Source of the DNA: Patiria pectinifera
Taxonomy: Eukaryota > Echinodermata > Asteroidea > Valvatida > Asterinidae
NCBI GenBank assembly: GCA_029964075.1
Contig: CM057142.1
Location: forward strand, 33,420,392-33,484,391
Direction: 5' to 3'
Length of the DNA: 64,000 nt
Shown here: in pieces, positions 12,201 through 64,000 of the stretch
Layout: every line of letters starts with the position of its first letter
Numbering within the stretch: position 1 is the stretch's first letter
Notes under the pieces: generated by a model
Told to the model about the DNA's origin: nothing
Database searches by the model: none
What the model saw: only the letters and a program-made list of their open reading frames with translations
Program-made: the position numbers and the translations under genes

Positions 12201-15200
12201 CACGTCTGTTATATTTGTTTTGTTTCGTGTGGTACGTGTATGAGCCGAGAACTATAAACCATAGGCCTACATGTCATTTTTGCTGACCACATTTTTTGGG
12301 AAGCATACTTTTGTACTGAACATACTGAAATTGGCTTGTTTTGTCGCCAAATACGGAATTTAGCACAGGGTATTTTAAAGTTCTTGCCAAACTATGTTCC
12401 CGTTATTTTTGTGAACTATTACAGAGACAGAAATATTACCATAAATTATCTTTTGCAGCAATGTTCAGTTTACTAAACCTTTAAGGTGTTTGTTAAATTG
12501 CGAAATACGGTTCCCATCGACGACAAATGATGCCTAAAAGCGCACAATTTTCATTTTTAATTACAGAAAAGCACTGCTCTATCATTAGAGTATTAATAAT
12601 CTGTACAATTTCGATGATTTGTTATTGCATCTATACAATCGAAGCGTTCGCTGATCTGCTTGTGAAAATCATAATAAAAAAGCCCAATATTTCAAGGTTC
12701 TCACATTTTCATCAGATAATCCAAACTGTTATTTCAGCTGATACGCCAACAAGGAAACGGCAATTCCGCTTCAATATCCCCTATACCAGTTTGAATGCAT
12801 ATAGCTAGCATTTCCACATTATCAACACGTTCACATCACATTCGTCTGTGCACATATCGATTTTATAATTTTATCCCGCCGGCTGTAACGGCCAACGTTG
12901 CTATAATAATTAATAATTCCTCCGAAGGTCGTTGATCAGGCACGTGGCGCATCATTAAAATATGTAAGTTTGTCAGCTAGCGACAGCTTTGTTGTATCAT
13001 CTATTGTGGCTATTGAAGGTAATATACAACATTGCTTTTGCAGCTGTAATTTTCAAAAATAGATGGATTTGGAGGTTAGTATTTCACAGCAAATGTTGTT
13101 ACACTTGTTACACGTAGCAATGTATAAACGTCGGGGAATTGTCAGGTGAGGGAACCAGACTAGCTGGCTTGCACCCGTTCACAGATGTGTAACCTATTGC
13201 AAACAAAATGTGGACTAACTAAATTTGGTAAATTAGGGGCAGAATTAAAAACAAATGTCAGTTTTTTTCCCCAACGATGGTCGGCCGACCATCGTTGGAA
13301 ATTGCTACAAAAATTCCACTTTTCTTGAAAATGACGGCACACCAGGTGCCACGACTTCAGCGGATGCTTGAGACTGTATTATTCACTTACAGTCAAGTAA
13401 CGTATTTCATCATAATTTGGCAGTTTTGGTTTAAGATGTTTACAAATGTTGAATACTATACTACCTATAGGGATGTCTGCTGCACTAAAACTTGATAACC
13501 CGATCTGGTAACCCGTACTTGGTAAAACCTACTTAAACGCGAGGTTTTTAGCGAAACTTAAAGATGGCTTTAGGGTGCGTTTGAGTAGCGTCCCCGTCTA
13601 TAACGGGGTTTACACTCGAGGAAGCCACGAAATGAGGCTAATCGAACGATGCGGTGTATTCGCCTGGCATTCTGGGAAAATTAAGGTCAAAGGTTGTTGC
13701 GGGGCAGGACTTTGAAATGTAAACACACCAGGCATACTGTCGTCTGCTCCACACTCGTAACCAGATTGATAATTGCTGAAATGCAAAAATTATCAAAAAT
13801 ATGTCTAGTATTAAACACCGTTAATAATTGGGAATATTAAGTTTGTGTCATAAATCTCTGCTTTGTTCCCGCCATCTTCAATCTAGCTGGCCACGAAATC
13901 GTCCGGTGACGTCATTACACTCGTGCAGTCACCAGAGACCCGCTGGGTCAATGGAGTGACACCAGGGGAAGACCCCAGTATCACGTGATGGCTAATCGAA
14001 CACTCTCGTGTAAATTTTAATTGCACGTGTAAGCTACCCGAACGCACCCATAGTCAAGCATGGTAAGGCCAAAAAAACCCAAAAATACTCGGTCTCTGGT
14101 CAGCGCGCGCGTCGATTTTAATCATGCGCGTCAACCTTTTTTTCTTCTTCAAATTAACACGGAAGCTACAACAGCGCCCTCTATTGCCGCGCCTCCTCAA
14201 ATTTTTGTACCAAGGAGCACCAAGGAATGGGGAAATTGCACCAAGGCAAATGATAAAGGGCACCAAGGCAAATTATGGAGGACACCAATGTATAATGAGG
14301 ACACAAAAAAACAAAATAGTACCCACCTTGTCTGTACAATACAAGCTTGAAAAAAAAAGCCAAAAAAAAAAAAAAACCCCGCGTCGCCGCATCAATTCCG
14401 GAACTTCGGTCTGACCGGAGACCGACTATTTTTTTTTTTGGCCTAATGAAGGGTGTGCATATTGTATAGAACTTTGACTTGTGAATATAACACAACGGTA
14501 ATCGAGTTGGTAACAATTCAATCACAGGTCTATTACAAAGTCAAAACACAAGCAACAAGAGATTGAACATTAGCCCACTGTTCAATAGACCTAGGACATA
14601 ATGACGTCACGATTTGTTTACATGTGCTCTTTCCTATGGGAGCCAGGTGGGGACGAGATCCACCAAGCTCCCATAGGAAAGCGCACATGTAAACAAAGCG
14701 TGACGTCATTATGTCTTAGGTCTATTTGAGTAGTTAGTCGCTCGACTTTAGACTACTGGATGACATGGTATTTGCCTTGTGATGACACAATAACCTCCGG
14801 AATATGACCGCCTCGATGGCCCACAATTGGACAATTACTTCACAGTATCTCGGAGAGCACGCGATTCGACAGAGTCTGCAGTAAACATTAAAGGGAGCTG
14901 AGATGGTATTTGGAATGTTTAATATTGGCCCAATGATTAGGGGTAATAATAACACTGTAAGCGCTGTGTAGCCTAGTGGTTAGGGTTCGTGACTCATGAT
15001 CAGAGGGTCCGGGGTTCGAATCCAGCCGCTGGCCATACATTGTGTCCTTGGGCAAGGCACTTCACCCCCACTTGCCCCTCTCCACCCAGGAGTATAAATG
15101 GGTACCGGTATTAGCTGGGGAGTAACCTGCGATGGACTGGCATCCCATTCAGGGGGAGAAAATATTCTCAGTCGTTTCATGCCAAGGAAACCGGAGATAA

Positions 15201-48200: not shown

Positions 48201-51200
48201 TTCATTTTTTTGTAATCATCCTGTAGAGCCTGAAAGTAAACGGTTATGCGGCGAGCTTCCTGGAACCTTGCACGGCCCGCATGTGGGCATTCTAAATTCG
48301 GTTGCCCTTTCACCTTCTATCATTTTTGGCAGAATAATTTCTAACTGTAAACACCCCAAAAGGCACAAACACTTTTTTATCTTGGTATTCTTTACTGGGC
48401 GAAATTCCAGAACCAGTTACACATTCAAATTCAAACATTCCTATTCAAATGTCCTGGGTAGGCCTAGTACACCGCGTTATGGGGAAGTTCATTATTGTTA
48501 GGCAAATTAGGACAGAGTTATGGGGACTTTCTGCTGTCCCCATACACCGCATTGTCGGTCCCCACAAATGCCTCGTACAAACGAGTGTATGTCCCCACAA
48601 CTACAGAACAAAATCGTGTAAACTTTAAGGCGCTAGATCGGAGGTACGTGGTGATCGATGGTTGATGTCAAACTGCATTGTGAGACAGTTCGCCATGGTG
48701 CACGCGGATTTTGTGGTAGAGCTAACTGTCCTACAATATGCAGCAGCACCTTTTTAGTACATAATATAAGTCTGGTATGGCGGCCGTCTCATTAAAGGCC
48801 TGTGGCAGTAGTATTCCCATAATGCTTTGCGTTTCTTGAGTAATGTTCTTTTTTAACAAGATACACCGTCACTATTGTCCCCTTGATGAGCCAACACGTG
48901 TACGGACCTGCGTTATTGATCAGAATGTGCAGCTGGGACTCCTCCTCCTTGATCTTGTCAGCGAACGCCCTCACCGAGGCCAGAGAGGCCAGGTCTAACT
49001 TGCGAATCACCAACTGCCCCCTAGAGGTCGCCCTTCGTATGTCAGCTCTGGCTTCCGTAGCCTTGGCCACGTCTCGACATGCCAGAATCACTCGTGCACC
49101 TGTTTATCAGAAACACAAATTATTACCAACTTAAGGGTACAAATCGTCAGAGTTTTCACGAAGAGACAATTTTGGCCACGGGGCGTTGAAACATAGTTTT
49201 GAGAAAATCGACTTTAAAGTTGAACCCTTTTTAAACTGAAGATTCCGCCTATTTTTAGAGGACATGTTGATTATTTTTTTATACCGATAGTAAGCTGAAA
49301 TCTCACACTTACATATTGTCCCAATTGCGAGTCAATAGACCAATTAATTGCGGAGCAATTAACGTTCATAGTCAATTGTCTCTTCGTGAAAACTCAAATT
49401 CCACAGGCGATTGGTTTTGCCGGGAAAATTGGCAATGAAAACTCAAACTCTCCGCTATCCAAACACGCACAAATTGGCTCTTCGTGAAAACTCAAAATCC
49501 CACACGCGCTTCGTTTTGCCCGCACGCGTCGTTTTGCTTGCGCGCGCTTGAAAATTGACTCTTCGTGAAAACTCAAATCGCACACGCGCGTTATTTTGTC
49601 CTCATAGAACAACGTGCATTTTTGCTACAATTGTCTCTTCGTGAAAACTGAAAATACGTTTTGGGTGAAATTTTCCCTTTATTGATTCTCATGATCTCAA
49701 TGATTTCATCTGATTTTGACAAAATAAATTCGCCAAGATGTCCGTTGCTATACACTTAATCGATTTCGGCCAAAAAAAGAATTTCGAAAATTTACTGATT
49801 TTTGCCAAAATTGTCTCTTCGTGAAAACTGTGACGAAATAATTAATCAACGCTCGTCAACTTATGTTGCAAACTCTGGATGAAAATAGAGCCACTTTTCA
49901 CGTGTGAGGTTTAAGTTTCATCTGTTCCTGAATTACGAGAAATGGTTCTGACAAAATTGTATTGATTAATTTCGTAAATTAACCTAACGTCCTAGCCATC
50001 ACTTTGGGATAAAGAACTGAGTACTACAGAATACTATGAGTGTTGTGCACACTTGGATATGCTGAAGTAATTCGTACTACAGTTTAATACTATTGTAGTT
50101 TTTTGTGTAGCTTTAGGTGAGGTTATTTTTTTTCTGTTTGAAATAAGTTTCTTTCTTACGCCTTTAAAACAGAAATGCAATATATCAAACTGTTAAAACG
50201 AAAAGGTATATTACAATGATCTCTCTTTCTCGGCAAATCTTTGGTCGCTTACCTCTCCTAGCGAGATCTCTTGCCGTCTCCCTGCCGATGCCGGTGTTTG
50301 CTCCCGTGATGATGACCGTCTTACCGTTCAGACGGGCCTCGCTGTAGCACCATCCTCCGGCTATAAACCTCCGCAGACGCCATATAGACAAGATGAACCC
50401 TGGTCGGGAAGATCATTGAATTCATCAAAACGTGCAGCAATATAGACCTTTCTTTCATTTGTAAACATTGAGCGCCGTTTTGTAAGGTTGCCACAAGAAC
50501 ATAAATTGAAGCCGTGGATGTCAACAGATTTTGCCAAAAATTGCATACTAATACCCTCATTATGTAAGAAAGAGGCATTTATATTATGACTTTTGTAATG
50601 AAACATATCTTGAACACGTGAAAGAGTTGTGAGGGCTATTAATATTGGAGTCAGTGCGAATTCTGGTCTTCACCCATAACTCTATATAGAAAGTGTACCT
50701 GGTAGTTTATATGTGCGCGCAGTATCAATAGCATTCCCCGGCTGCCCCACCCAGGATCATGTGGGGACTATCACTTTTGAAATGACCAAATGCTTACCCC
50801 TGGGGCAAACTTTAAGTGCCAGTCTTCAACATGCATGGATGGGGCGCCCTAAACTAAGTTGCCAGTAGTGTGCCAACGGTATAGAAGTTTCGTGCGTGAC
50901 CAAAAAGTATACCAAACCCTAGAGGGCAGTGTGTACAAGAGGAGGAACGGAGTGGACATCATTGTTATACATGGGGGTGTGAAGGCGGCAGATCCGGGAA
51001 TGTGGACAACAGAGGTGGCAGCAAGTCATTTTTTGCAAGTCCAAGTCAAGTCACAAGTCACTGTTTGCAAGTCCAAGTCAAGTCACAAGTCATTGTTTGC
51101 AAGTCCAAGTCAAGGCACAAGTCACTGTTTGCAAGTCCAAGTCAAGTCACAAGTCATCAGGTCCAGTCACAAGTCAAGTCACAAGTCATTAGGTCCTGTC

Positions 51201-51766
51201 ACAAGTCAAGTCACAAGTCATTTGGTCTAAACACAAGTCAAGTCACAAGTATCTTTGTCCAAGAACACGTCAAGTTGCACATTACTTTGCCCAGCTGTAA
51301 CTAATAAGCTAAAAGAACCTGGCGTTTGAACTTACAAGTTATTTTTAACATGCCTCCAAGTTATTTTTAACATGCCTCCTTAATTCCACTTTTTCAATGT
51401 GTTGCAATTACTAGTCTTGTAGTTTATCACATATCTGTCGGACATATTAGCCCTTTGTAAGTCACAAGTCATTGTTTGCAAGTCCAAGTCAAGTCACAAG
51501 TCAAAGCTGGTATTTACAAGTCAAGTCACAAGTCACAAAAATAGCGACTCGAGTCCGACTCGAGTCCAAGTCACATGACTCGAGTCAGCAACTCTGGTGG
51601 ACACATAGCATTCTACTTGGGGAGGAGGTCACACCCCCTCCACACCCACTCTAGAGACGCCCGCACACCGACAGTGATGGCTAATCGTGCAAAGTAACCA
51701 CAAAGTACGAGATACAAGAAACTTACCCGACAGCACTACGGCAAGCACCGTCAGCCACACTGACAT
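45292..51766 (-). CDS. Retinol dehydrogenase RDH13/RDH12-like short-chain dehydrogenase (complete, 6 exons)
   Basis: Exons on the minus strand: 51766-51727, 50360-50253, 49099-48908, 47373-47095, 46490-46271, 45436-45292. Total 984 nt, 327 residues, phases consistent; the exon 3 donor GTCCGT is a weak GT site. The product is an NADP(H)-dependent oxidoreductase of the classical SDR type; relatives RDH11-14 reduce retinal and other aldehydes at ER or mitochondrial membranes. Residues 1-13 are hydrophobic and followed by GGWC, an N-terminal membrane anchor. The cofactor motif TGANTGIG is at 32-39, LINNAG at 109-114, the catalytic Ser near 161 in VNVSS, and Y187-x-x-x-K191 in YGQSK. LHPGV and ARRLW near the C-terminus are typical of RDH11-14. 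The length matches the family (316-331). RDH13 is the closest by eye, but RDH12/RDH14 are not excluded. It is head-to-head with cdkal1. Confidence 0.92.
45686..46139. mobile_element. 454-bp foldback MITE with TA flanks
   Basis: The left end TACACTCAACCAAAAAAGAA...GTCTAACTCAAAAACTACTG and the right end CAGTAGTTTTTGAGTTAGAC...GGTTGAGTGTA are long inverted repeats (about 65 bp, imperfect in the C/G run). Inverted words (GTGTACAAAATTATGCAATT, TGACAAAATG) continue inside. The TA flanks suggest a Tc1/mariner-type transposase. It fills over half of dehydrogenase intron 5. Confidence 0.82.
47712..48224. mobile_element. 513-bp nearly perfect foldback element (family F)
   Basis: Termini ACAGAATGAGTA and GTAATCATCCTGT relate it to 32435-32802. 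The arms are over 200 bp. They include TTTTCAAGTTACGGAATTTT, AGTTCTGTCCACGGATCA and GTGTTCTTTCAGCAAAACG, each mirrored at 47993-48085. The loop is about 20 bp around GGGATGCATGCATGC. It lies in dehydrogenase intron 3. Confidence 0.85.
49145..49835. mobile_element. 691-bp TIR element with arrayed TTGTCTCTTCGTGAAAACTC motifs (E49)
   Basis: Inverted termini of 31 bp with one mismatch start CGTCAGAGTTTTCACGAAGA. AAAT flanks both ends, a possible 4-bp duplication. The terminal motif TTG(T/A/G)CTCTTCGTGAAAACT recurs inside at about 49375, 49474, 49555 and 49631, all in the same sense as the right terminus. The ends and internal copies make six in total. It lies in dehydrogenase intron 2, 45 bp upstream of exon 3. 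Confidence 0.8.
50440..50590. repeat. Family D repeat, uninterrupted copy
   Basis: ATAGACCTTTCTTTCATTTG...AACATTGAGCGCCGTTTTGTAAGG...AAGAAAGAGGCATTT matches 18785-19260 minus its insert. It lies in dehydrogenase intron 1. Confidence 0.75.
51020..51590. repeat. CAAGTCAAGTCACAAGTCA minisatellite
   Basis: Tandem and interspersed copies of CAAGTC-based units are present. From 51020 to 51150 there is a unit of about 33 bp (TTTGCAAGTCCAAGTCAAGT + CACAAGTCA). From 51150 to 51260 the units are shorter with a GTCC(A/T)GTC spacer. Another block is at 51460-51590. It is in dehydrogenase intron 1; frames read through it are artefacts. Confidence 0.85.
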
Positions 51767-53336: not shown

Positions 53337-56300
53337 ATGCCGGCGTGTGAGCAGCAGAGAGTGGATGACATAGAGGACATCATTGGTTCAAATGATGTCA
53401 CTCCAGTCGAAAGATACGGCAACAAATCGGAAGTAGTGCCTAAAGTGAGGTTGAGAAAAAAGAGCAAGAGAGATGTTGATCGTACATCGCCCCGTAAAAC
53501 AATGGACAGTGCGTCAACACAAGACTTACAAGACGAAGTGAACTGCAATAAAAGGTGATTTGTTAATTGTCAAAAGGTTGTTAGGAAATAAGACACATTG
53601 ACATATTTAGGAAAGAATGTTGTATCCACTGTCCAGACGCCACTTCTTCGGTTGTGTACAATTTACAAAGTCTAGACTAGAGTCGAGTGTATTTTCGAAG
53701 TATTTTCTCCAAATTGGAAATGTGTCTCAGTCCTTTTGCAATGACTGACCTTCATTGAGATAATTATATGATGAAAAAAGTGGCGTCAGGATGCAATATT
53801 CTCTCCCATAATAGCCTACTCCCCCAAGTTAATAATATCCATTGACCTTTTGAGTTACCACTGGTTACTCCTAGAACTATGAATGCTACGCTCCGCGGAA
53901 CATCATAGTTCTGGGAATACTTTTGAGTTGTAGCCTAGGGTTATCACTCTGGTGATTTGTAATTACATGAATTAATTTCAGTGATGTTGAGTCATACCAA
54001 AACCTGCAATCATATACTTCTCAATAGGGATGTTTTTACATTTTTCGAATAAAGTTTATGCATTTGTTTTTTATGTGGTTTTTCAGAGAAGGTCATAAGA
54101 CACATTTTGCTTTAATTTTTGTTTTAAAAAAATCTGATATTCAAACTAATTTGGAACACTAAAGTGAGCCGTAAAAAAACCAAAATTTTAATCACAATTT
54201 GTTATTAAGAACATCTCTGCCGATATAACTGGTTATTAAATTTCTACTTTTTTCTTGGCCTAAAAGTCCCCCCCCCCCAACTGCACACTGTGTATCTTCT
54301 ACTAAAGTTCTTGTTCCAGAAGTATTAATGATAAATGTGTGTTTTGAAACTTTATGGAAACATGTCAGATACGGATGATATAAAACTTAATCTATTATTA
54401 TTTTTATGGGCCTTAACTTCAAACATGATATTTAAACTGTTTGATCATGGGTTCCTTTTCTCTCTATCTGCTGGTTAAAGGGAAAATACAACATTTGCAA
54501 ACATCAAAAAATAAAACTACCAAGTTTTTACGAAATACCTCTCTAGGATGTTGGTAAATGACAGTCTAAAGCATCCTGTAAAATTATGGCACCTGGTGTG
54601 AAGTCATTTTTAAGAAAATTGTATTTTTGTATACATTTCCAACGGTGGTCGGCCGACCACCGTTGGAAAAACCTAACTATTTTTCAACTACTGCTCCAAC
54701 TTTACACTTTTTTTCAGTCCAAATTTTGTTTACTATTGGTTACGTGTTCATGAACGGGTGCAGGCCAGCTAGACTGGTTCCCTTACCTTACAATTTTCCG
54801 GCATCTATAAATTGATCCATTTTATCTTTAGTGGAGTCAAGGAACCAGACTACTTAAACATTTTTGTTTTTCTTGTTTTTTTTCAGCATTTTCGAACACA
54901 AAACTTCAAACATGTCAGTGAAACAATATTTTATCTATTATACTAACCCCTCAAATAGTTCATTTCTGAAAATTACAGCAAAAGCCAATGATGTACATTC
55001 CCTTTAAACACTGTAGCATCATCCCTGGTACACAGAAGATCTACGTGAAGACGTGGGGATGCTCTCACAACAATTCAGATGGGGAGTACATGGCGGGTCA
55101 GCTGGCGGCCTACGGGTACAAAATAACAGGTACTTGAATCTGGGTATTGAAACAATACCTAGAAACATTGTTGTGCTGTTAAATGTTCAAGGCATATAGG
55201 AACATTTGCACTTATCCAAAAGGTAACCTAGCGAATTATTATCCAAAAAGACTTATTTGGATTAAAGATCATACTAGTACCAAACGTTCGTTGAAATTAT
55301 TCTGCCTAGTTTGCTGTCATTTAGAAGAAATCAAGAAATGTAGGCAATTTCTAATGGTCGGTCATTTATGACTGATCATTGGAAATTATTAGTAACTAAT
55401 AAATGAAATTGTGTTTCGTGATCAAAGGTTGTGCGTGTTTTTTCACGGATTTTCAAGAATTCACAAGTTTGGTAATTTGATATAGCCTTGCTTTGACTGC
55501 AGAGGCGATTGATATGTCAACTGTATCTACGAGTTACATCTTTTGTCCGTGGCTGAAATTTGACTAGTCACATTGTTTACACAAATGTGACCTGACTGTA
55601 TTTTACTAGCCTTTATACAAGATGGAGTGACAGTGCAAGTGGAAAAGTTTTTTGACTGTCTGTGAATGATCAAACAACGGGGAGGATTAAAGGAAATATA
55701 CAACATTTGCAAGCATCGAAAAATAAAATTACCACATTTTTACAAAATACCTTACCAGGATGTTGGTAAATGCCAGCCTAAAGCATCCTGTAAAATTATG
55801 GCACATGGTGTCAAGTCATTTTCTAGAAAATTGTATTTTTGTATACATTTCCAACGGTGGTCGGCCGACCACCGTTGGAAAAACCTAACTATTTTTCAAC
55901 TACTGCTCCAATTTACAATTTTTTTCAGTCCAAATTTTGTTTGCTATTGGTTACATGTTCATGAACGGGTGCAGGCCAGCTAGACTGGTCCCCCTTACCT
56001 TACAATTTTCTGACATCTATAAATTTATCCATTTTTATCTTTAGTGGAGTCAGGGAACCAGACTACTTAAACATTTTTGTTTTTCTTGGTTTTTCAAGCA
56101 TTTTCGAACACAAAACGTCAAACACGTCAGTTAAACAATATTTGATTTATTATACTAACCCCTCAAATAGTTCATTTCTGAAAATTGCAGCAAAAGCCAA
56201 TGATGTACATTCCCTTTAAACCAAGCAATTGGTTTGTTTTCCATTTCAAAACCTGGCCTTCTCACCAACCCTAATCAAGGCAATCAAGAAGAGGCGGACC

Positions 56301-59300
56301 TCTGGCTTCTGAACAGCTGTACAGTCAAGAACCCGGCGGAGGATCACTTCCGTAACGACGTCAAGCACGCCCAGCGGCTGGGCAAACACCTGGTGGTGGC
56401 TGGCTGCGTGCCCCAGGGCCAACCCAAGCTGGGTTACATCGGCGGCGTCAGCGTGGTCGGGGTGCAGCAAATCGACAGGGTGGTGGAGGTTGTGGAGGAA
56501 ACACTGAAAGGTATGGAGGGCAATGGTGGCGTTACGCCCCAACTGTAACAGTGGCCGCAACTACAGTCTGGACAGCCCCGACTATAGTTGGTACCGTCCC
56601 AACTGAGGCCAGGATCATCCTGACTATAGTCGTGACGATGCCCAACTATAATTGGGACATAAAAGTGGCCACTTCTTGAGATGAAGAAGAGAAAAACGCA
56701 ATTTGAAGATTTACCAGTCTAGGTATGATTGGATTCAAAAGGAATGTACAACTTTTGCAAACATCGAAAAATGAAACTACCAAGGTTTTACAAAATACCT
56801 AACTGGGATGTTGGTAAATGACAGTCTGAAGCATCCTGTAAAATTATGGCACCTTTTGTCAAGTCATCTTCAAGAAATTGGTATTTTCGTATACATTCCC
56901 AATGGTGGTTGGCCGACCACCGTTGGAAAAACAAAACTATTTTTCAACTACTGCTCCAAATTTACCATTTTTTTCATTCCAAATTTTGTTTGCTATTGGT
57001 TACATGTTCATGAACGGGTGCAGGCCAGCTAGACTGGTTCCCTTGCCTTACAATTTTCCGACGTCTATAAATTGATCCATTTTATCTTTAGTGGAGTCAG
57101 GGAACCAGACTACTTAAACAATTTTGTTTTTCTTGGTTTTTCAAGCATTTTCGAACACAAAACTTCAAAATGTCAGTGTAACAATATTTGATCTATTATG
57201 CTAACCCCTCAAATAGTTTATTTCTGAAAATTACAGCAAAAGCCAAATGATGTACATTCCCTTTAAGCAAAGTTGTTGGCGCCCCTCGATTTTGAAAATG
57301 TCATCTCCCACATCACAGCAGTCAACAACTGTTAAATGACACTCACTGCGTCCGTAAAGACGCACTGATAATCCACATTCTTACGTTGGCAGGGCACACA
57401 GTCCGACTTCTGAAGCAGAAGAAACACGAAGGCAAGAAGATCGGGGGAGCACCGCTAGATCTTCCCAAGATCAGAAAGAACCCACTCATCGAAATACTGG
57501 CCATCAACACCGGGTAAGAGCAGTTAACATTTTCACAGCATCGCCGAACATGTTTCTGTTAAAAGACCTCTTCTCCAGGGCTAAAATTTTAAATCTGCTG
57601 TGTTCAACATAGGGTTTTGCCCTTCACCAACGTATTTTTATAAACACTGTATACTCAGTGTTGTCACAAGTAATTGTGAGAAAAAACTCACAAACTACTT
57701 GGGGTGGGACTCGAACCCACAACCTCCTGCCTACTAGTGCAGACGTCTTATACCACTCGACCACCGCGCTTGCCGGGGTCGGCTGGCTGGTTCAACACTG
57801 AGTATACAGTGTTTATAAAATACGTCGGTGAAAGGCAAAACCTTATTTTGAATTTATCATCCCAACGCCAATTCCAATATGAAAAGACTTCTGTACCAAT
57901 AGATTAAAAATCATCTAACAGGATTATGTTAGTCTGGTCAACAAGGACTTCAAATTGCGACTTAGACCCCGTATTCCATTGTCATTTTTGTGCACATCAA
58001 CTATCCCACCAGTCTTATTCAGTCATAGAATACAATACAATACTTAGTACAGTATGTACTACATTGTATATATACACAGGGTGAGTCAAAAAAAGCGGAA
58101 CCCAAACCCCCAAAAATATATTTCATATTTAAGAAATATGTAGCACCAAAATTAACCATGACTGGAAAGCCAATTTCATAAGGTACTTTTAGTTTTAGAT
58201 GAAAAAATGACTGAAAAAAAAAAACCTGTCTCGTCCAAAAAAACCCTGCGATTTCAAGAATTGGCGTCGCAATTGTCTTCAGACATCACCAGCGATAAAA
58301 TCTCAGTTTAAATGTTCAAAATATTCAACAAAATCCCTTTGAAGGCCCGTCCTTTAAAAACAGTAGATTTTAAAAACAGTAGATTTTATAAATCATTTTG
58401 TTTGCCTAACCAGGGTTGTTAATAAAGATATTGTGTACTACAGTTGACGACAGTTGTTGAAACAAGTATTCTGTGTCATTTTCTTTGTTGCTCCAAACAG
58501 TCAAACCACACAATGAATTGCTTTTTTTTGGACAAGACAGGTTTTAGGATTGAGCAATTTCAGTAATTTTTTCATCTAAAAGTAGCTTATGAAATTGGCT
58601 TTCTAGTTATTATTATTTTTGGTGCTACATATTTTTTTAAATATGAAATATACTTTATGGAGTTTGGGTTCCGCTTTTTTTTGACTCGCCCTGTAGTACA
58701 CAATACAGTTTGTTTTATATTGACAATTTCTGTTGTTCATAAAACTAGCTTCCTGATGTGTTTCATTAGTCATGTAAAACAAATAGAATGCTTCACAGAT
58801 CACAGAAGGGAGCTAGTTTTACTGTACCACAAAAATAAGTCAATGTTTGGCGATTTTTTTTTTTTTCATATGATACCAAGATACTGTGCATATTTTTAGA
58901 GACATCTGATTAAATGTTAAAACAATTGTACTGCTATGTCAATATTAATTGAATGATATGAATATAATAGATACAGATTAAAGCAAATCAGCATTCAAGT
59001 TCCTGACAAAAATAGGCAGTAGTTCTTCGTTAGTGGAAGTAAGAAAACAGGTAGGGATTCGAGAAACACAGAAGCGAAGATTTATCAAAAAGCTGAAATA
59101 GTTGTAAACACCATACAAATGAGCAAGCATGTTCCTGTGAATGGGACGATTCACAATGCAGTGCGCCATCAAGAGTTTGCCATGGAGTGTCCATTTTTCA
59201 ACTTTACCGGTCGACAAAACACGGGCCATTTGAATGAGTGTCATTAAACAACTTGAGCTAATTTGTTATAGATTGGGGCACAGCGTTCTGCCGCCTTACA

Positions 59301-62300
59301 AAAACACCATATTGATAAAAAGAAAAGAAAAGGGCAAACAGATCCTCGAATCATACACTTACAAAACTACTGACCGAAAACACTAACAACTTCAAATGTC
59401 CCACGCTGCGACTTTGTCGACCATCTCCCACAATGCACTAGAAAAAATGAACTCTCCGTGACAAACTCTTGGTGGCGCACTGCATTGTGAATCGCAGGAA
59501 TTCACTTTTCTCTGTTTTTCTCTTATTCTCTTGTAGTTGTTTGAATCAGTGTACCTACTGTAAGACCAAGCATGCCCGTGGGGAGCTTGGCAGCTATCAG
59601 CCTGAGGAGCTGGTGGAGAGGGCTAGGCAGTCTTTCCAAGGTCAGAACTCATAAGATATCTCGAAAAAGTATTTTGTTTAAATATTCGATCAGATCCAAG
59701 TTCCAATAATAATCAAATACTAAATTATTCCAAAATGCACAGCATTTAGCTGGTCACACTGTGATGTGTACAGATTCTGAATGGAGTCCAATCCTCATAA
59801 AAGGTTTCGATCGTATGACGTCAAAATATAACCTGACCATCCAGTTTCCTTGTGATCGGCCACCATAGCAGTAGGCAAGCGTTAGGTTAGCAAACACGTC
59901 GTGCGTTGTAAACTGGTCAGTAGGGCTTATTTTCACTTGAAAGCGCAAATTCTTTATCAAATGGCATAATGGTCACTATTTTGTTGTTGGCCCCGCGTTT
60001 TTCTCTCAGTTTATGCCATCCATCACAGCTTTGAAGGCTTGCCTACTACCTACTGCGCGGTGGCCTATACAATCTTTGCCTACATGTACTTCGCCTACAT
60101 GTACTTCAATGTTGACGCTGACTTCCCGGTTCCCCGATGTACATGTAGGCCGGGTTGCGAGACAGCCCTATAAGAAACATCCCAATCCAACAACTTTTTC
60201 CAAATGAACAATCTAGATTAACCCTAACCGCCCTGAATCCTTCAAAATCCTCTTTGCCAAACTGCTTCCACTTTGAGGATTAAGGTTACATGGCAAAAGT
60301 GCATTACTGATTTCATAGGATGCACTTTGTCAAGGTCTTGGGCCGGACCTTGCATTGTTTTTGCTCATCCAAGCATAAATATAGGCCTGGATTATGCTTA
60401 CAATCCTCCGTACTGCTCCAGGATGTCACTGGCCAAGCCTCAACATATTGACAGTCACTGCCGCAGGATTTTGCAGGATTCAGGCAGTGGTCACTCCTCC
60501 ACAGACCATATTCAAGAAATAATGGAGGAATTTGCAGGATTGAGGCTATATGCTATTTTTCCATTTGGCCAATTGGAGGATTTTGCAGGATTGAGGCTAC
60601 TTCCTAGCAAAAAGGCCTAGGGAGTTAGGGTTAACACACTTGACTCCAGTCTCTAGCACTCCAAAACAAACTGTTCAACCATCTGCCACTTGCGAGTCAC
60701 GTTTTGATTCTTTTGGATTTTTATAATTTGCTCGTCAGAGGGTGTCTGTGAGATATGGCTGACAAGCGAAGACACTGGTGCCTATGGGAGAGACATTGGG
60801 GTCACCATCACCGAGTTGCTATGGCAACTGGTTGAGGTCATTCCGGAAGGATGCAGAATGCGGATTGGAATGACCAATCCTCCCTATATCCTGGAACACC
60901 TCGAGGTAAGGAAGCCAAAAATTGTAGAAAGGTAAAGATGTATTCCCTGTAATTCCTTTTCTAAATTGCTGTTTTTCTAGCAATACAAAATATTGTCACT
61001 ATATGGTATTGAAATATAGTCCAAGCCTACTGCTAAGCCTTTATAACTACTTCTGGCGGGGTCTTCATAAAAGTCTGCACATTTTATACTTAAGTCCTCA
61101 TCATATCACTTTTCCCTTCAGGAAATGGCCAAGATCTTACAGCATCCTCGAGTCTACTCATTCCTCCATGTACCAGTTCAAGCCGGCTCAGATAATGTAT
61201 TGTTGGACATGAAGCGGGAATACAGCATTGATGACTTCAGACACGTTGTAGACTTTCTCAGGGAGAGGTATTACGAAAAATAATTTTCTAAATTAAATTT
61301 AGGTTCTTTGTCACTGTGCGAAATAAGTACAAAAATAGCAGAGTATTTGTGATGCCATCGAGCTACATGAGTCGCTTGTCAATTTTTTTTTATTACAGAT
61401 TGGAAAAGAGCACAATCTCAGCATTACTGCTGTGAAATCCGCATGCTGATACCATCTCTAGTCAAAAAATTATGGAGGTCAGAACACCAAGAGATGTGAT
61501 GAAGTGATGTGATGAAGTGGCCCTATTTTGGCCTCAATCTCCACATAAAAAATCCCGAGAAACGACCCATTTAGCTTGACCACATCACATTTAAGGATGA
61601 AGAAATTAGTCTGAACAAGTTAGACTGGGGAAAAAAAATCAGCAGACATCAGCAGTAAGGATGTTACATTGCATTTAATGTTGTAAACGCTTAGCAAGTA
61701 TTTAAATTTTTAAGAACCATCTAAATGTTTCAACATTTAGCCATTTCACAAAGGCTGATGCCTGCTCATTATGCATGCAGACCGGCAAGATTTACATTTA
61801 TATATCAACAATGATTGACATAATAAATAGCGAGCAGTCATTGAAAAAGTAAAAAACTTAAACTGCATGTACCCTGAATGTAATCAAGTACTGCTGTGCT
61901 TAAAGTACTCGGTAATAGGTTTGAAAACATCGTAAATTATTTGTGCTATGTATGTTTAACTCTGAGGAGGATCGCGTGAACGTAGGTCCCTGTTTTAATA
62001 ATTCGGGCGTTTAAACATTTTGGAAAATCTGTCGACAATTTTTTTCCCCATTTAAAGGGAATATACAACATTTGCAAACATCGAAAAATAAAACTACCAA
62101 ATTGTTACGAAATACATCACTAGGATGTCGGTAAATGACAGTCTAAAGCATCCTGTAAAATTATGGCACTTGGTGTGAAGTCATTTTCAAGAAAATGGTA
62201 TTTTTGTATAAAAAGTCAGCCGACCACCGTTAACTATTTTTCAACTACTGCTCCAAATTCACCATTTCTTTTCAGTCCAAATTTTGTTGGTTATTGGTTA

Positions 62301-64000
62301 CATGTTCATGAACGGGTGCAGGCCAGCTAGACTGGTTCCCTTACCTTACAATTTTCCAGCATCTATAAATTGATCCATTTTATCTTTAGTGGAGTCAGGG
62401 AACCAGACTACTCCACCATTTGTGTTTTTCTTGGTTTTTCCAGCATTTTTGAATGCAAAACTTCAAACATGTCAGTGTAACAATATTTGATCAATTATAG
62501 TAATCCCTCAAATAGTTCATTTCTGAAAATTAGAGCAAAAGCCAATGATGTACATTCCCTTTAAGCGTTTAAATGTCACATCCTTAATCAACAGCATTGT
62601 ATTCATGACGAGGGTCTTTGTTTACTCTTGTCATTGATAATCGGTTCAATATATTTTTTTGTGGATACAAATCTTAAATTGGTTTTGTTTTGAAAACAGG
62701 TTTCATACACACTATGTAGGGTTGAAGTTTTTCACTCAACTGTTCAAGTTGTCTTCCACTCCTGGAAAGTCTAACAATTATTCCCTTTTGTATAATTTTT
62801 ATTTTCAGAGTTCCAGGGATTACAATAGCCACAGATATAATATGTGGATTCCCAACCGAAACTGAAGAGGTAAGAAGTTTCACCGATTTCTGAGACGTTC
62901 TGTAAGAATTTCTAAGAAGATTTCTAAGAAGTTTCGAAGAAGTTTCTGAATTTCAGAAAAATATGATGAATTTTTGACTAGGCCTGACATCCCAGATTCT
63001 GCCCGTAAATGTCAGAGAGAAGGTTGGGGGAGGGTGTGATGTAAGTCTAATACATGATCAAAACAAGATGGAGTAATCGGGCCTTTCATTAAGTTTGTGG
63101 GCAGAGAATTATTATGCTGCTTGTCGTCTGTGTCGACGCATTCTGGATTTCATGAGAGAATAAATTCATGAATATTTCACTTCCGATAATGATAGCCAAT
63201 GTGTTTTTCAAGCCCAACATTGCCGTTTGCTCCTTGAAAGTTATCAACATTTTCAAACTTTGTATAAGTTTGATGGTATTGATGTACCCTAATGTGGCGC
63301 GACCCCTAACGTGGCGCACTTTGATTTTTCGCCTCTAGTGCCTTGTTAGAGCAAGTTTTACCTTAATTTCACAGTAACTGAAATTTCATCAAACCCTAAA
63401 CATTCCCATTCATAAGCCTTGAGTAAACCTACCTGTTACAAAGTTAAGACAGAAACTTTACTTTGATGCGATGTTCCGATTGTATGTTGAAGTGGGCACT
63501 GCGCAGTGAACCCTTTTAAGATGTGCCCAAATATAAGAGAATAATTTTCTGACAAACACGTACATGGATATGTGAGTAAAGACAATAATGGTTTATCAAA
63601 GAATTTGCCAACTTTAAAAAGAAATTCTCAAATGTTCACTTGGGAATTTCTGAGATTTGTTCAAGTGTGCCACATTAGGGAACACTCAACAGATTTTGTG
63701 TCCAATTTCGGGACGCCACCGTTTTTGAAATTCGGACTAACAATTCATGACACTAAAATTGTTCCCAAGGGTTCAACATCAAGCAATTTTAAGTAATACT
63801 ACCAGTATTTAACTGAATGAATTTGAAGCTCGTCAATGTCAACAAAGAGGTTTTGTAACACTGCATGAGGAAAGTCGAACAGCATTATCAAAGGTTATTA
63901 GCACCAGTGCCTTGGGGGTCAGGGTTAACTTATATAAATAACCAATTTTAATAATAAATTGAACACGCTTTCCTTTGCATCATTAGGACTTTGAGGAGAC
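53337..64000 (+). CDS. cdkal1: CDKAL1 threonylcarbamoyladenosine tRNA methylthiotransferase (5' nine exons, partial)
   Basis: Exons: 53337-53554, 55017-55129, 56280-56510, 57393-57513, 59537-59640, 60739-60905, 61122-61267, 62809-62869, 63987 to the window end. All phases match, giving 391 residues so far of about 580 expected. CDKAL1 is a radical-SAM enzyme of the ER membrane. It adds the 2-methylthio group to t6A37 of tRNA-Lys(UUU). The N-terminal MTTase domain has three cluster cysteines: C88 in [17 protein letters not shown]124 in [12 protein letters not shown] and C153 in AGCVPQ. The radical-SAM loop C229-L-N-Q-C233-T-Y-C236 starts exon 5. [33 protein letters not shown] and [11 protein letters not shown] follow in family order. 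The C-terminal TRAM domain and tail anchor lie beyond the window. Start: the MPACE... frame opens with a DDIEDI segment like the vertebrate N-terminus. Exon 3 starts at the first of two AG sites, which best fits alignment length. Confidence 0.97.
54475..55007 (+). mobile_element. Family P MITE copy 1 in cdkal1 intron 1
   Basis: The 533-bp element is bounded by TTAAAGGGAA-type and TTCCCTTTAA ends, with TTAA at both borders. A perfect 34-bp palindrome lies at 54636-54669 (arms TTTCCAACGGTGGTCGG). The element ends 9 bp before exon 2. It is non-coding. Confidence 0.85.
55185..55450 (+). repeat. Family B repeat, partial copy in cdkal1 intron 2
   Basis: It matches family B from GCACTTATCCAAAAGGTAACC through TTAGAAGAAATCAAGAAATG to GATCAAAGGTTGTGCGTG. 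The 3' third is missing. Confidence 0.7.
55687..56219 (+). mobile_element. Family P MITE copy 2 in cdkal1 intron 2
   Basis: 533 bp with TTAA at both ends and high similarity to copy 1 throughout. A perfect 34-bp palindrome lies at 55848-55881. The element ends 60 bp before exon 3. Confidence 0.85.
56734..57266 (+). mobile_element. Family P MITE copy 3 in cdkal1 intron 3
   Basis: The same element and orientation, with the left end decayed to TTCAAAAGGAATG. The central palindrome carries mismatches in its left arm (CCCAATGGTGGTTGG). It ends 126 bp before exon 4. Confidence 0.85.
57609..57845. mobile_element. Foldback element whose loop is a tRNA-like sequence
   Basis: The arms 57609-57664 and 57793-57845 are inverted (ending ...ACACTGTATACTCAGTGTTG). 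The loop contains, on the minus strand, GGTGGTCGAGTGGTATAAG (A-box-like) and GGGTTCGAGTCCCACCC (T-loop/B box) within about 57701-57774. The 5' and 3' ends of this tRNA-like part do not pair as an acceptor stem, so it is a tRNA-derived retroposon head rather than a functional tRNA. Confidence 0.7.
58073..58695. mobile_element. ~620-bp foldback MITE with ACAGGGTGAGTC termini
   Basis: The left end TACACAGGGTGAGTC followed by AAGCGGAACCCAAAC is mirrored at the right by GTTTGGGTTCCGC...GACTCGCCCTGTA. Pairing continues inside (AAATATGTAGCACCAAAA, GAAAGCCAATTTCATAAG, TTTTAGATGAAAAAATTACTG). The unpaired middle (58250-58540) is non-coding. It lies in cdkal1 intron 4. The terminus resembles family F. 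Confidence 0.8.
60410..60610. repeat. Degenerate tandem repeat of GGATTTTGCAGGATTGAGGC
   Basis: At least three spaced copies (about 60466, 60529 and 60575) of a unit of about 20 bp are present, together with GCAGG/GGAGG words. It lies in cdkal1 intron 5 and ends near a TTAGGGTTA. Confidence 0.5.
62052..62564 (+). mobile_element. Family P MITE copy 4 in cdkal1 intron 7
   Basis: 513 bp, TTAA at both ends. The central palindrome has lost most of its left arm; only GTCAGCCGACCACCGTTAAC remains. The other sequence is well conserved with copies 1-3. It ends about 245 bp before exon 8. Confidence 0.85.
63287..63681. mobile_element. Possible TIR element in cdkal1 intron 8
   Basis: ACCCTAATGTGGCGC at 63287 is the inverse of GTGCCACATTAGGGA at 63667-63681, and ACCCCTAACGTGGCGCAC repeats the left end directly. 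There is no coding frame. Short termini make this uncertain. Confidence 0.45.

What the first reader, a model, noticed from the sequence alone, without database searches (positions are those of the whole stretch)
54475..57392. The same MITE sits immediately upstream of three consecutive cdkal1 exons
Family P copies end 9, 60 and 126 bp before exons 2, 3 and 4, all in the same orientation. For exon 2 the last bases of the element (TTCCCTTTAA) are the only pyrimidine tract before the acceptor ACTGTAG, so the transposon seems to supply part of the splice site. A fourth copy lies in intron 7. Repeated insertion next to acceptors could reflect insertion preference, co-spread of exon-flanking DNA, or selection for splicing signals.
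Basis: partly seen in the sequence, partly recalled or inferred. Interest (0 to 1): 0.75.

Follow-up and report, generated by a model that had tools for sequence, protein, structure and literature searches.

The report
Mobile DNA rebuilt a splice acceptor
An ordinary, very common small transposon landed four times in one gene, mostly by chance, and one copy split the splice signal in front of exon 2 so that the transposon's own end now appears to do part of that signal's job.

Summary
Four sense-oriented copies of a ~533-bp TTAA element lie in cdkal1; three end 9, 60 and 126 bp before exons 2, 3 and 4, the fourth in intron 7. By its ends it resembles Kolobok/T2 MITEs; at least 6,761 right ends lie in the 613.5-Mb genome. 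The four are separate insertions: each is closer to copies elsewhere. About 0.75 such clusters are expected by chance, and copies clump anyway. Among sampled copies, exons lie within 150 bp on the acceptor side in 9 of 232 flanks and on the donor side in 3-4 of 232 (p 0.14-0.26): no preference for acceptors is demonstrated, though a two- to three-fold one is not excluded. The exon 2 copy is the real point: joining its flanks shows that it inserted between a strong native pyrimidine tract and the AG. Everything from -10 to -542 is now transposon, so if exon 2 is spliced at this AG, its tract and branch point are transposon-derived. No RNA evidence was available.

The parts
54475..55007 (+). MITE copy 1 in intron 1, ends 9 bp before exon 2; inserted between native pyrimidine tract and AG
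   Evidence: TTAA on both sides; 3.2% from the majority sequence
55687..56219 (+). MITE copy 2 in intron 2, ends 60 bp before exon 3
56734..57266 (+). MITE copy 3 in intron 3, ends 126 bp before exon 4; left TTAA reads TTCA
62052..62564 (+). MITE copy 4 in intron 7, ends 244 bp before exon 8; palindrome partly deleted
54450..54474 (+). native flank with strong pyrimidine tract (TTCCTTTTCTCTCTATCT), formerly next to the exon 2 acceptor, now 533 bp upstream
   Evidence: flanks joined in a script: pyrimidine run of 14, 12 of 12 in the best window, against 8 and 10 of 12 in the occupied site
54998..55007 (+). right end of copy 1 (TTCCCTTTAA) that now would serve as pyrimidine tract
   Evidence: function inferred
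55008..55016 (+). native remainder of the acceptor, ACACTGTAG
54941..54978 (+). TACTAAC ... ATTACAG inside copy 1: possible decoy acceptor; its use would add 38 nt and hit a stop at codon 77
   Evidence: sequence and translation; the branch-point reading is recalled consensus
53337..53554 (+). cdkal1 exon 1 (coding part)
   Evidence: translation
55017..55129 (+). cdkal1 exon 2
56280..56510 (+). cdkal1 exon 3
57393..57513 (+). cdkal1 exon 4
59537..59640 (+). cdkal1 exon 5
60739..60905 (+). cdkal1 exon 6
61122..61267 (+). cdkal1 exon 7
62809..62869 (+). cdkal1 exon 8

Best explanation
A very abundant short DNA transposon without a transposase gene (TTAA target, AGGGAA ends, Kolobok/T2-like) inserted four separate times into introns of cdkal1. 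Its placing before exons 2, 3 and 4 is mostly chance in a gene with short introns (621 and 353 bp once emptied for introns 2 and 3) and a genome where copies clump. The exon 2 copy is special: it landed at a TTAA between the native pyrimidine tract and the AG. Shown: the interruption, and that all sequence from -10 to -542 is transposon. Inferred: the gene survived because the element's end reads TTCCCTTTAA towards the acceptor and stands in for the lost tract, with a branch point also inside the element.
For: Coordinates, TTAA and termini. At least 6,761 right ends genome-wide. Each copy is nearer to copies elsewhere than to its neighbours. Expected number of such 4-copy clusters about 0.75, and 8 of 81 gaps between exact right ends on contig C1 are 8.09 kb or less against 1.8 expected. 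Flanks joined for copy 1 give a strong tract before ACACTGTAG. Exon 2 lies in one open frame with exons 1 and 3-8. A second copy, elsewhere in the genome, ends 16 bp before an exon-like frame (L114/L149; protein match only E 0.011).
Against: Among 149 sampled right flanks (146 distinct), 7 (perhaps 9) have an acceptor within 150 bp in sense; against a rough 2.4% expectation that is p 0.07 (0.01 with 9), so a mild acceptor bias is not excluded. Three of four in one gene has p 0.0004 at the sampled rate, and p 0.013 by TTAA sites. A narrow acceptor matrix scores the empty site lower (-3.1) than the occupied one (-1.4). No RNA evidence that exon 2 is spliced at 55017. The element also brings a possible decoy acceptor.
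Confidence: 0.7

Rival explanations
1. The element prefers, or is retained at, positions just upstream of acceptors, because TTAA is common in AT-rich, pyrimidine-rich intron ends or because its end strengthens acceptors.
For: Sense acceptor-side hits 7-9 of 149 right flanks against 1-2 of 149 (right end, antisense exon, donor side), 2 of 83 and 2 of 83 in the two left-end classes; two of the sampled hits are in one gene, a PNGase-like gene with three sense copies (L046).
Against: No comparison among the classes reaches 0.05 (p 0.06-0.50); antisense acceptor-side rate is 2 of 83, close to the rough 2.4% expectation; three donor-side exons of the left-end class fall just outside, at 153-160 bp; further doubtful exons within 150 bp fall in other classes too.
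Confidence: 0.2
2. Local duplication: one copy with its flank was copied between introns of the gene (co-spread of exon-flanking DNA).
For: Four copies, same strand, within 8.1 kb.
Against: The 30 bases printed on each side of the four copies differ apart from TTAA, and each is closer to sampled copies elsewhere (best 97.5, 94.5, 93.0, 93.5%) than to its neighbours.
Confidence: 0.02
3. Copy 1 is harmful: the locus in this assembly carries a weakened or rare allele in which exon 2 is partly spliced to the decoy at 54979 or skipped.
For: TACTAAC inside the element is followed by an AG about 32 nt after its branch-point A (positions 54977-54978); its use gives a stop at codon 77. TACTAAC and ATTACAG are both present in 51 of 80 near-full-length copies.
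Against: The gene is open through exon 8; copy 1 is 3.2% from the majority sequence, so it is probably not brand new. Allele frequency unknown.
Confidence: 0.2

Closest known systems
T2-MITE / Kolobok superfamily of Xenopus (PMC6004289; passages seen)
   Same: TTAA target, terminal AGGRR motif (here AGGGA), short, many copies
   Different: No transposase or autonomous partner was sought here; unnamed host genome; a 34-bp palindrome, perfect in copies 1 and 2, lies inside
Transposons near intron ends in mammals (PMC3088655; abstract and passages seen)
   Same: Insertions close to exons, judged by distance, side and orientation
   Different: That study found TEs under 20 bp from exons biased to donor sites; copy 1 sits 9 bp from an acceptor, the rare class. 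It left DNA transposons out of the orientation analysis
Transposon-donated splice signals, such as antisense Alu in exonization (recalled; Alu cryptic acceptors mentioned in the PMC3088655 passages)
   Same: A transposon supplies pyrimidine tract and branch point
   Different: Here an existing exon keeps its own AG and swaps its upstream signals, instead of a new exon being born
Introners (intron-making transposons; recalled, search listing only)
   Same: Element ends close to splice sites
   Different: The introns remain when the element is taken out (933, 621, 353, 1032 bp)

Membership tests
Kolobok/T2-type MITE | TTAA target-site duplication | tested here: met
   Copies 1, 2 and 4 have TTAA on both sides, copy 3 TTCA at left. 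Sampled left ends, not used for choosing the sample: at least 56 of 82 start TTAAAGGGAA in the rows printed. Right ends: 88 of 90 read TTCCCTTTAA, but 82 of these 90 carry the exact 31-base end by which the sample was chosen, so this is no independent test
Kolobok/T2-type MITE | terminal AGGRR in the inverted repeats | tested here: met
   AGGGAA at both ends of copies 1 and 4, variants at the left end of 2 and 3; motif as given in PMC6004289
Kolobok/T2-type MITE | terminal inverted repeats | tested here: met
   first 24 against last 24 bases 83% in copy 1
Kolobok/T2-type MITE | short, no coding capacity | tested here: met
   533 bp; longest ORF overlapping copy 1 is 62 aa
Kolobok/T2-type MITE | moved by a Kolobok transposase with matching ends | not tested
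   no transposase search was run
piggyBac-type MITE | TTAA target with termini starting CCC (recalled) | tested here: not met
   termini start AGGGAA
Introner | element itself constitutes the intron, splice sites at its ends (recalled) | tested here: not met
   emptied introns of 933, 621, 353 and 1032 bp remain

The most novel reading that the evidence does not exclude
Elements with TTAA targets and AGGGAA-type inverted ends are splice-compatible by design: since both ends are inverted, either orientation presents TTCCCTTTAA towards a downstream AG, so an insertion that cuts a 3' splice site heals it at once. This would let them settle in the few bases between tract and AG from which other transposons are purged, and would replace native acceptors by transposon ones across the genome.
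Probability: 0.2. Interest if true: 0.6.

Novelty: new member of a known kind. Interest (0 to 1): 0.33.

Why it matters
In mammals, transposons very close to acceptors are rare and thought to be selected against (PMC3088655, passages). Copy 1 is a clean natural experiment in which an exon lost its pyrimidine tract to an insertion and seems to have received a ready-made substitute from the transposon end. With thousands of copies in one genome, the idea that some transposon ends are harmless in splice sites can be tested directly by annotation and RNA-seq.

Tried and rejected
Local duplication of exon-flanking DNA: rejected, flanks differ and copies are not sisters. Introner: rejected, introns remain without the element. 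Strong acceptor targeting: not supported in the sample. Sense-strand preference: sense 9 of 232 against antisense 3-4 of 232, p 0.14-0.26. Codon-only exon calls were dropped because reversed control sequence gave about as many hits (86 against 95 at threshold 10; 46 against 33 at 14); splice-site plus codon scoring gave 22 hits against 5 in reversed sequence on the 11 ten-kb loci, some of whose exons had trained the model. On the first 109 right and 83 left flanks it gave 11 hits against 3 in reversed sequence. An acceptor matrix over only the last 17 bases (recalled human-like frequencies) scored the empty site -3.1 and the occupied site -1.4, against the idea that the site got worse; it does not reach the native tract, so I do not rely on it. 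The search for a second allele or paralogue of exon 2 in the genome did not complete. A right-end-plus-acceptor pattern count did not complete and dropped. ARAGORN found no tRNA in the window. Literature searches for transposon ends as pyrimidine tracts listed 0, 1 and 3 papers; none was opened and no title or abstract start shown describes such a case. These searches cover the held library only.
Full report
What is there. Eight exons on the + strand translate into one open frame that matches a tRNA methylthiotransferase family (TIGR01578, E 4.3e-131); that this is CDKAL1 rests on recall of the human protein. Copies of a 513-533-bp repeat lie at 54475-55007, 55687-56219, 56734-57266 and 62052-62564, all +, 89-94% identical. 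Gaps to the acceptors of exons 2, 3, 4 and 8 are 9, 60, 126 and 244 bp.

What the repeat is. Its ends are TTAAAGGGAA...TTCCCTTTAA. At least 56 of 82 sampled left ends start exactly so in the rows printed; right ends agree in 88 of 90, but 82 of those 90 carry the exact end by which the sample was chosen. The terminal repeat is imperfect (24 bases, 83%), a 34-base palindrome lies inside, perfect in copies 1 and 2, and no ORF over 62 aa overlaps copy 1. TTAA plus AGGRR ends are the features given for T2-MITEs and Kolobok (PMC6004289, passages). I did not look for a transposase, so membership is by ends alone. A 31-base right end with up to 2 mismatches occurs 6,761 times, 0 in the pattern read backwards. 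This is a lower bound: copy 3, for one, has an extra base in that stretch.

Are the four copies linked? No. In an alignment of 80 near-full-length copies (4 from the window, 76 from fetched loci) each window copy has its best match elsewhere (97.5, 94.5, 93.0, 93.5%), its neighbours ranking 12th to 64th. Seven of the loci had been fetched as best matches to copy 1. The copies are 3.2-5.6% from the majority sequence, median of the 80 4.2%. The 30 bases printed on each side of TTAA differ at all four. Under a uniform model 0.75 anchor copies with three more within 8.09 kb are expected in the genome; on C1, 8 of 81 gaps between exact ends are that short against 1.8 expected, so copies clump. A four-copy gene is unremarkable.

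Do copies prefer acceptors? I took the 100 places listed (of 6,761; 81 with both flanks, 19 with the right flank only), the seven loci L002-L008, further copies lying in these loci, and the first 40 of the 100 places listed (of 136; right flank only). This gave 149 right and 83 left flanks. A later check found that 2 of the 100 places (L030, L044) had dropped out, that three pairs of right flanks are the same sequence (so 146 are distinct), and that one right and one left flank were too short and skipped; the two dropped places gave no exon call on the right flank and the p-values hardly move. Exons were sought with a codon model trained on exons of this genome plus splice-site matrices (recalled human-like frequencies). 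The candidate peptides were judged without labels and then unblinded, but I had seen several of them labelled before, and the judging leans on my recall of protein families.

Within 150 bp: A, element in sense just upstream of an acceptor, 7 of 149 (L011, L040, L046 twice, L067, L096, L114), with L103 (ankyrin, seen outside the blind list) and L120 (doubtful) 9; B, right end with an antisense exon, 1 of 149 (L023 at 148 bp), with L048 (doubtful) 2; C, left end facing an acceptor, 2 of 83 (L051, L065); D, left end after a donor in sense, 2 of 83 (L072, L032), with three more at 153-160 (L060, L040, L046). A second, laxer blind list added doubtful cases in B (L115, L086) and C (L020). Support from searches: above the curated cut-off, the neighbouring exon of L040 (PF00755, E 8e-12), L096 (3e-7), L051 (8e-14) and L103 (5e-6); below it, L011 (PF00118, 7e-4), L046 (PAW, 6e-5) and L023 (3e-3); L060 matches nuclear cap-binding protein (4e-6); L114 only a xylosidase at E 0.011. 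The near exons of L040, L067, L065 and L032 and the first one of L046 found no Pfam family, nor did the first L046 and the near L040 exon find a solved structure; L072 was not properly searched. These rest on recall and splice signals. L067 matched designed WRAP-T propellers over 20 residues (E 1.3e-7), which I do not take as homology.

Tests (hardly changed with 146 or 148 right flanks): A against B p 0.07-0.17; A against C or D p 0.50; A against B+C+D p 0.06-0.13; acceptor side (A+C, 9 of 232) against donor side (B+D, 3-4 of 232) p 0.14-0.26, and 11 against 4 p 0.11. Against a rough expectation of 2.4% (from recalled gene and intron numbers) A has p 0.07 with 7 and 0.01 with 9. The 95% range for A is 1.9-9.4% with 7 and 2.8-11.2% with 9. 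So a very strong preference is unlikely, a two- to three-fold one is not excluded. In cdkal1 itself, four random TTAA sites in the emptied introns give 3 or more within 126 bp of an acceptor with p 0.013, picked after the fact; at the sampled rate of 7 of 149, three of four has p 0.0004. Short introns account for part: introns 2 and 3 are 621 and 353 bp without the element.

Exon 2. Joining the flanks of copy 1 at TTAA gives ...GGGTTCCTTTTCTCTCTATCTGCTGGTTAAACACTGTAG/C: a pyrimidine run of 14 and 12 of 12 in the best window, against 8 and 10 of 12 with the element. The element thus landed between tract and AG. The acceptors of exons 3-8 have runs of 5 to 10, so the occupied site is within the gene's range. 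Exon 2 carries a stretch ([22 protein letters not shown]) that I recall as conserved in human CDKAL1. The one other AG that I tested, ATTACAG inside the element after TACTAAC, would add 38 nt and a stop at codon 77. If exon 2 is used, its branch point and tract must lie in the element, because from -10 to -542 there is nothing else; three AGs (54957, 54977, 54983) lie between TACTAAC and the acceptor AG at 55015. A narrow acceptor matrix does not show the loss (-3.1 empty, -1.4 occupied); it covers only the last 17 bases.

A second case, L114/L149, shows a copy ending 16 bp before an exon-like frame, inserted at TTAA before TTTTTTCGTCGTGTAG. Because both ends are inverted, either orientation presents TTCCCTTTAA to a downstream AG. 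That this makes such insertions tolerable is my inference.

Known context. In mammals transposons are depleted near exons, and those under 20 bp from exons favour donors (PMC3088655, abstract and passages). Copy 1 belongs to the rare class. Transposon-made splice signals are a known kind (recalled). The listings of three searches (0, 1 and 3 papers, none opened) show no case of a DNA transposon end replacing the tract of an old exon, which is weak evidence of novelty.

Limits: no RNA, no related species, no gene annotation, no second allele (the genome search with window 55008-55160 did not complete, last), and a sample of 149 flanks where the genome holds at least 6,761 right ends.

Noticed in passing
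window 13013-13451, minus strand: Older copy of the same element, matching copy 1 at about 76-79% in pieces.
   Followed up: no
window 54988-55137: ORF of 49 aa starting at ATGATG in the last bases of copy 1, running in frame into exon 2: a possible start for a shorter protein if a transcript began in the element.
   Followed up: no
L046 (C2:4562450-4572449): A PNGase-like gene with three sense copies of the element (two of them partial), two of them ending about 55 and 72 bp before exons by my reading (the script chose an AG at 91 for the second).
   Followed up: partly
G000 C1:27058603-27064947: Three exact right ends within 6.4 kb; the third lies 79 bp before a gamma-tubulin complex exon.
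   Followed up: partly
L008 1501-2047 and 2044-2486: Two copies in opposite orientation overlap by four bases, as if the TTAA at the end of one was the target of the other.
   Followed up: no
L131/L132, L142/L143, L146/L147: Pairs of right flanks from places 9-98 kb apart are the same over at least 60 bases, perhaps segmental duplications.
   Followed up: no
window 58076-58694: Element with long inverted arms (ACAGGGTGAGTCAAAAAAAGCGGAACCC...) in intron 4.
   Followed up: no
window 59147-59494: Another inverted-repeat element with 52-base arms, 90% complementary, in intron 4.
   Followed up: no
window about 57690-57775: GGGACTCGAACCCAC stretch like a tRNA B box on the minus strand (recalled motif) between inverted flanks; a similar stretch occurs in L032, so perhaps a tRNA-derived SINE; ARAGORN calls no tRNA.
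   Followed up: partly
window 51016-51536: Array of 32-base units around CAAGTCACAAGTCA.
   Followed up: no
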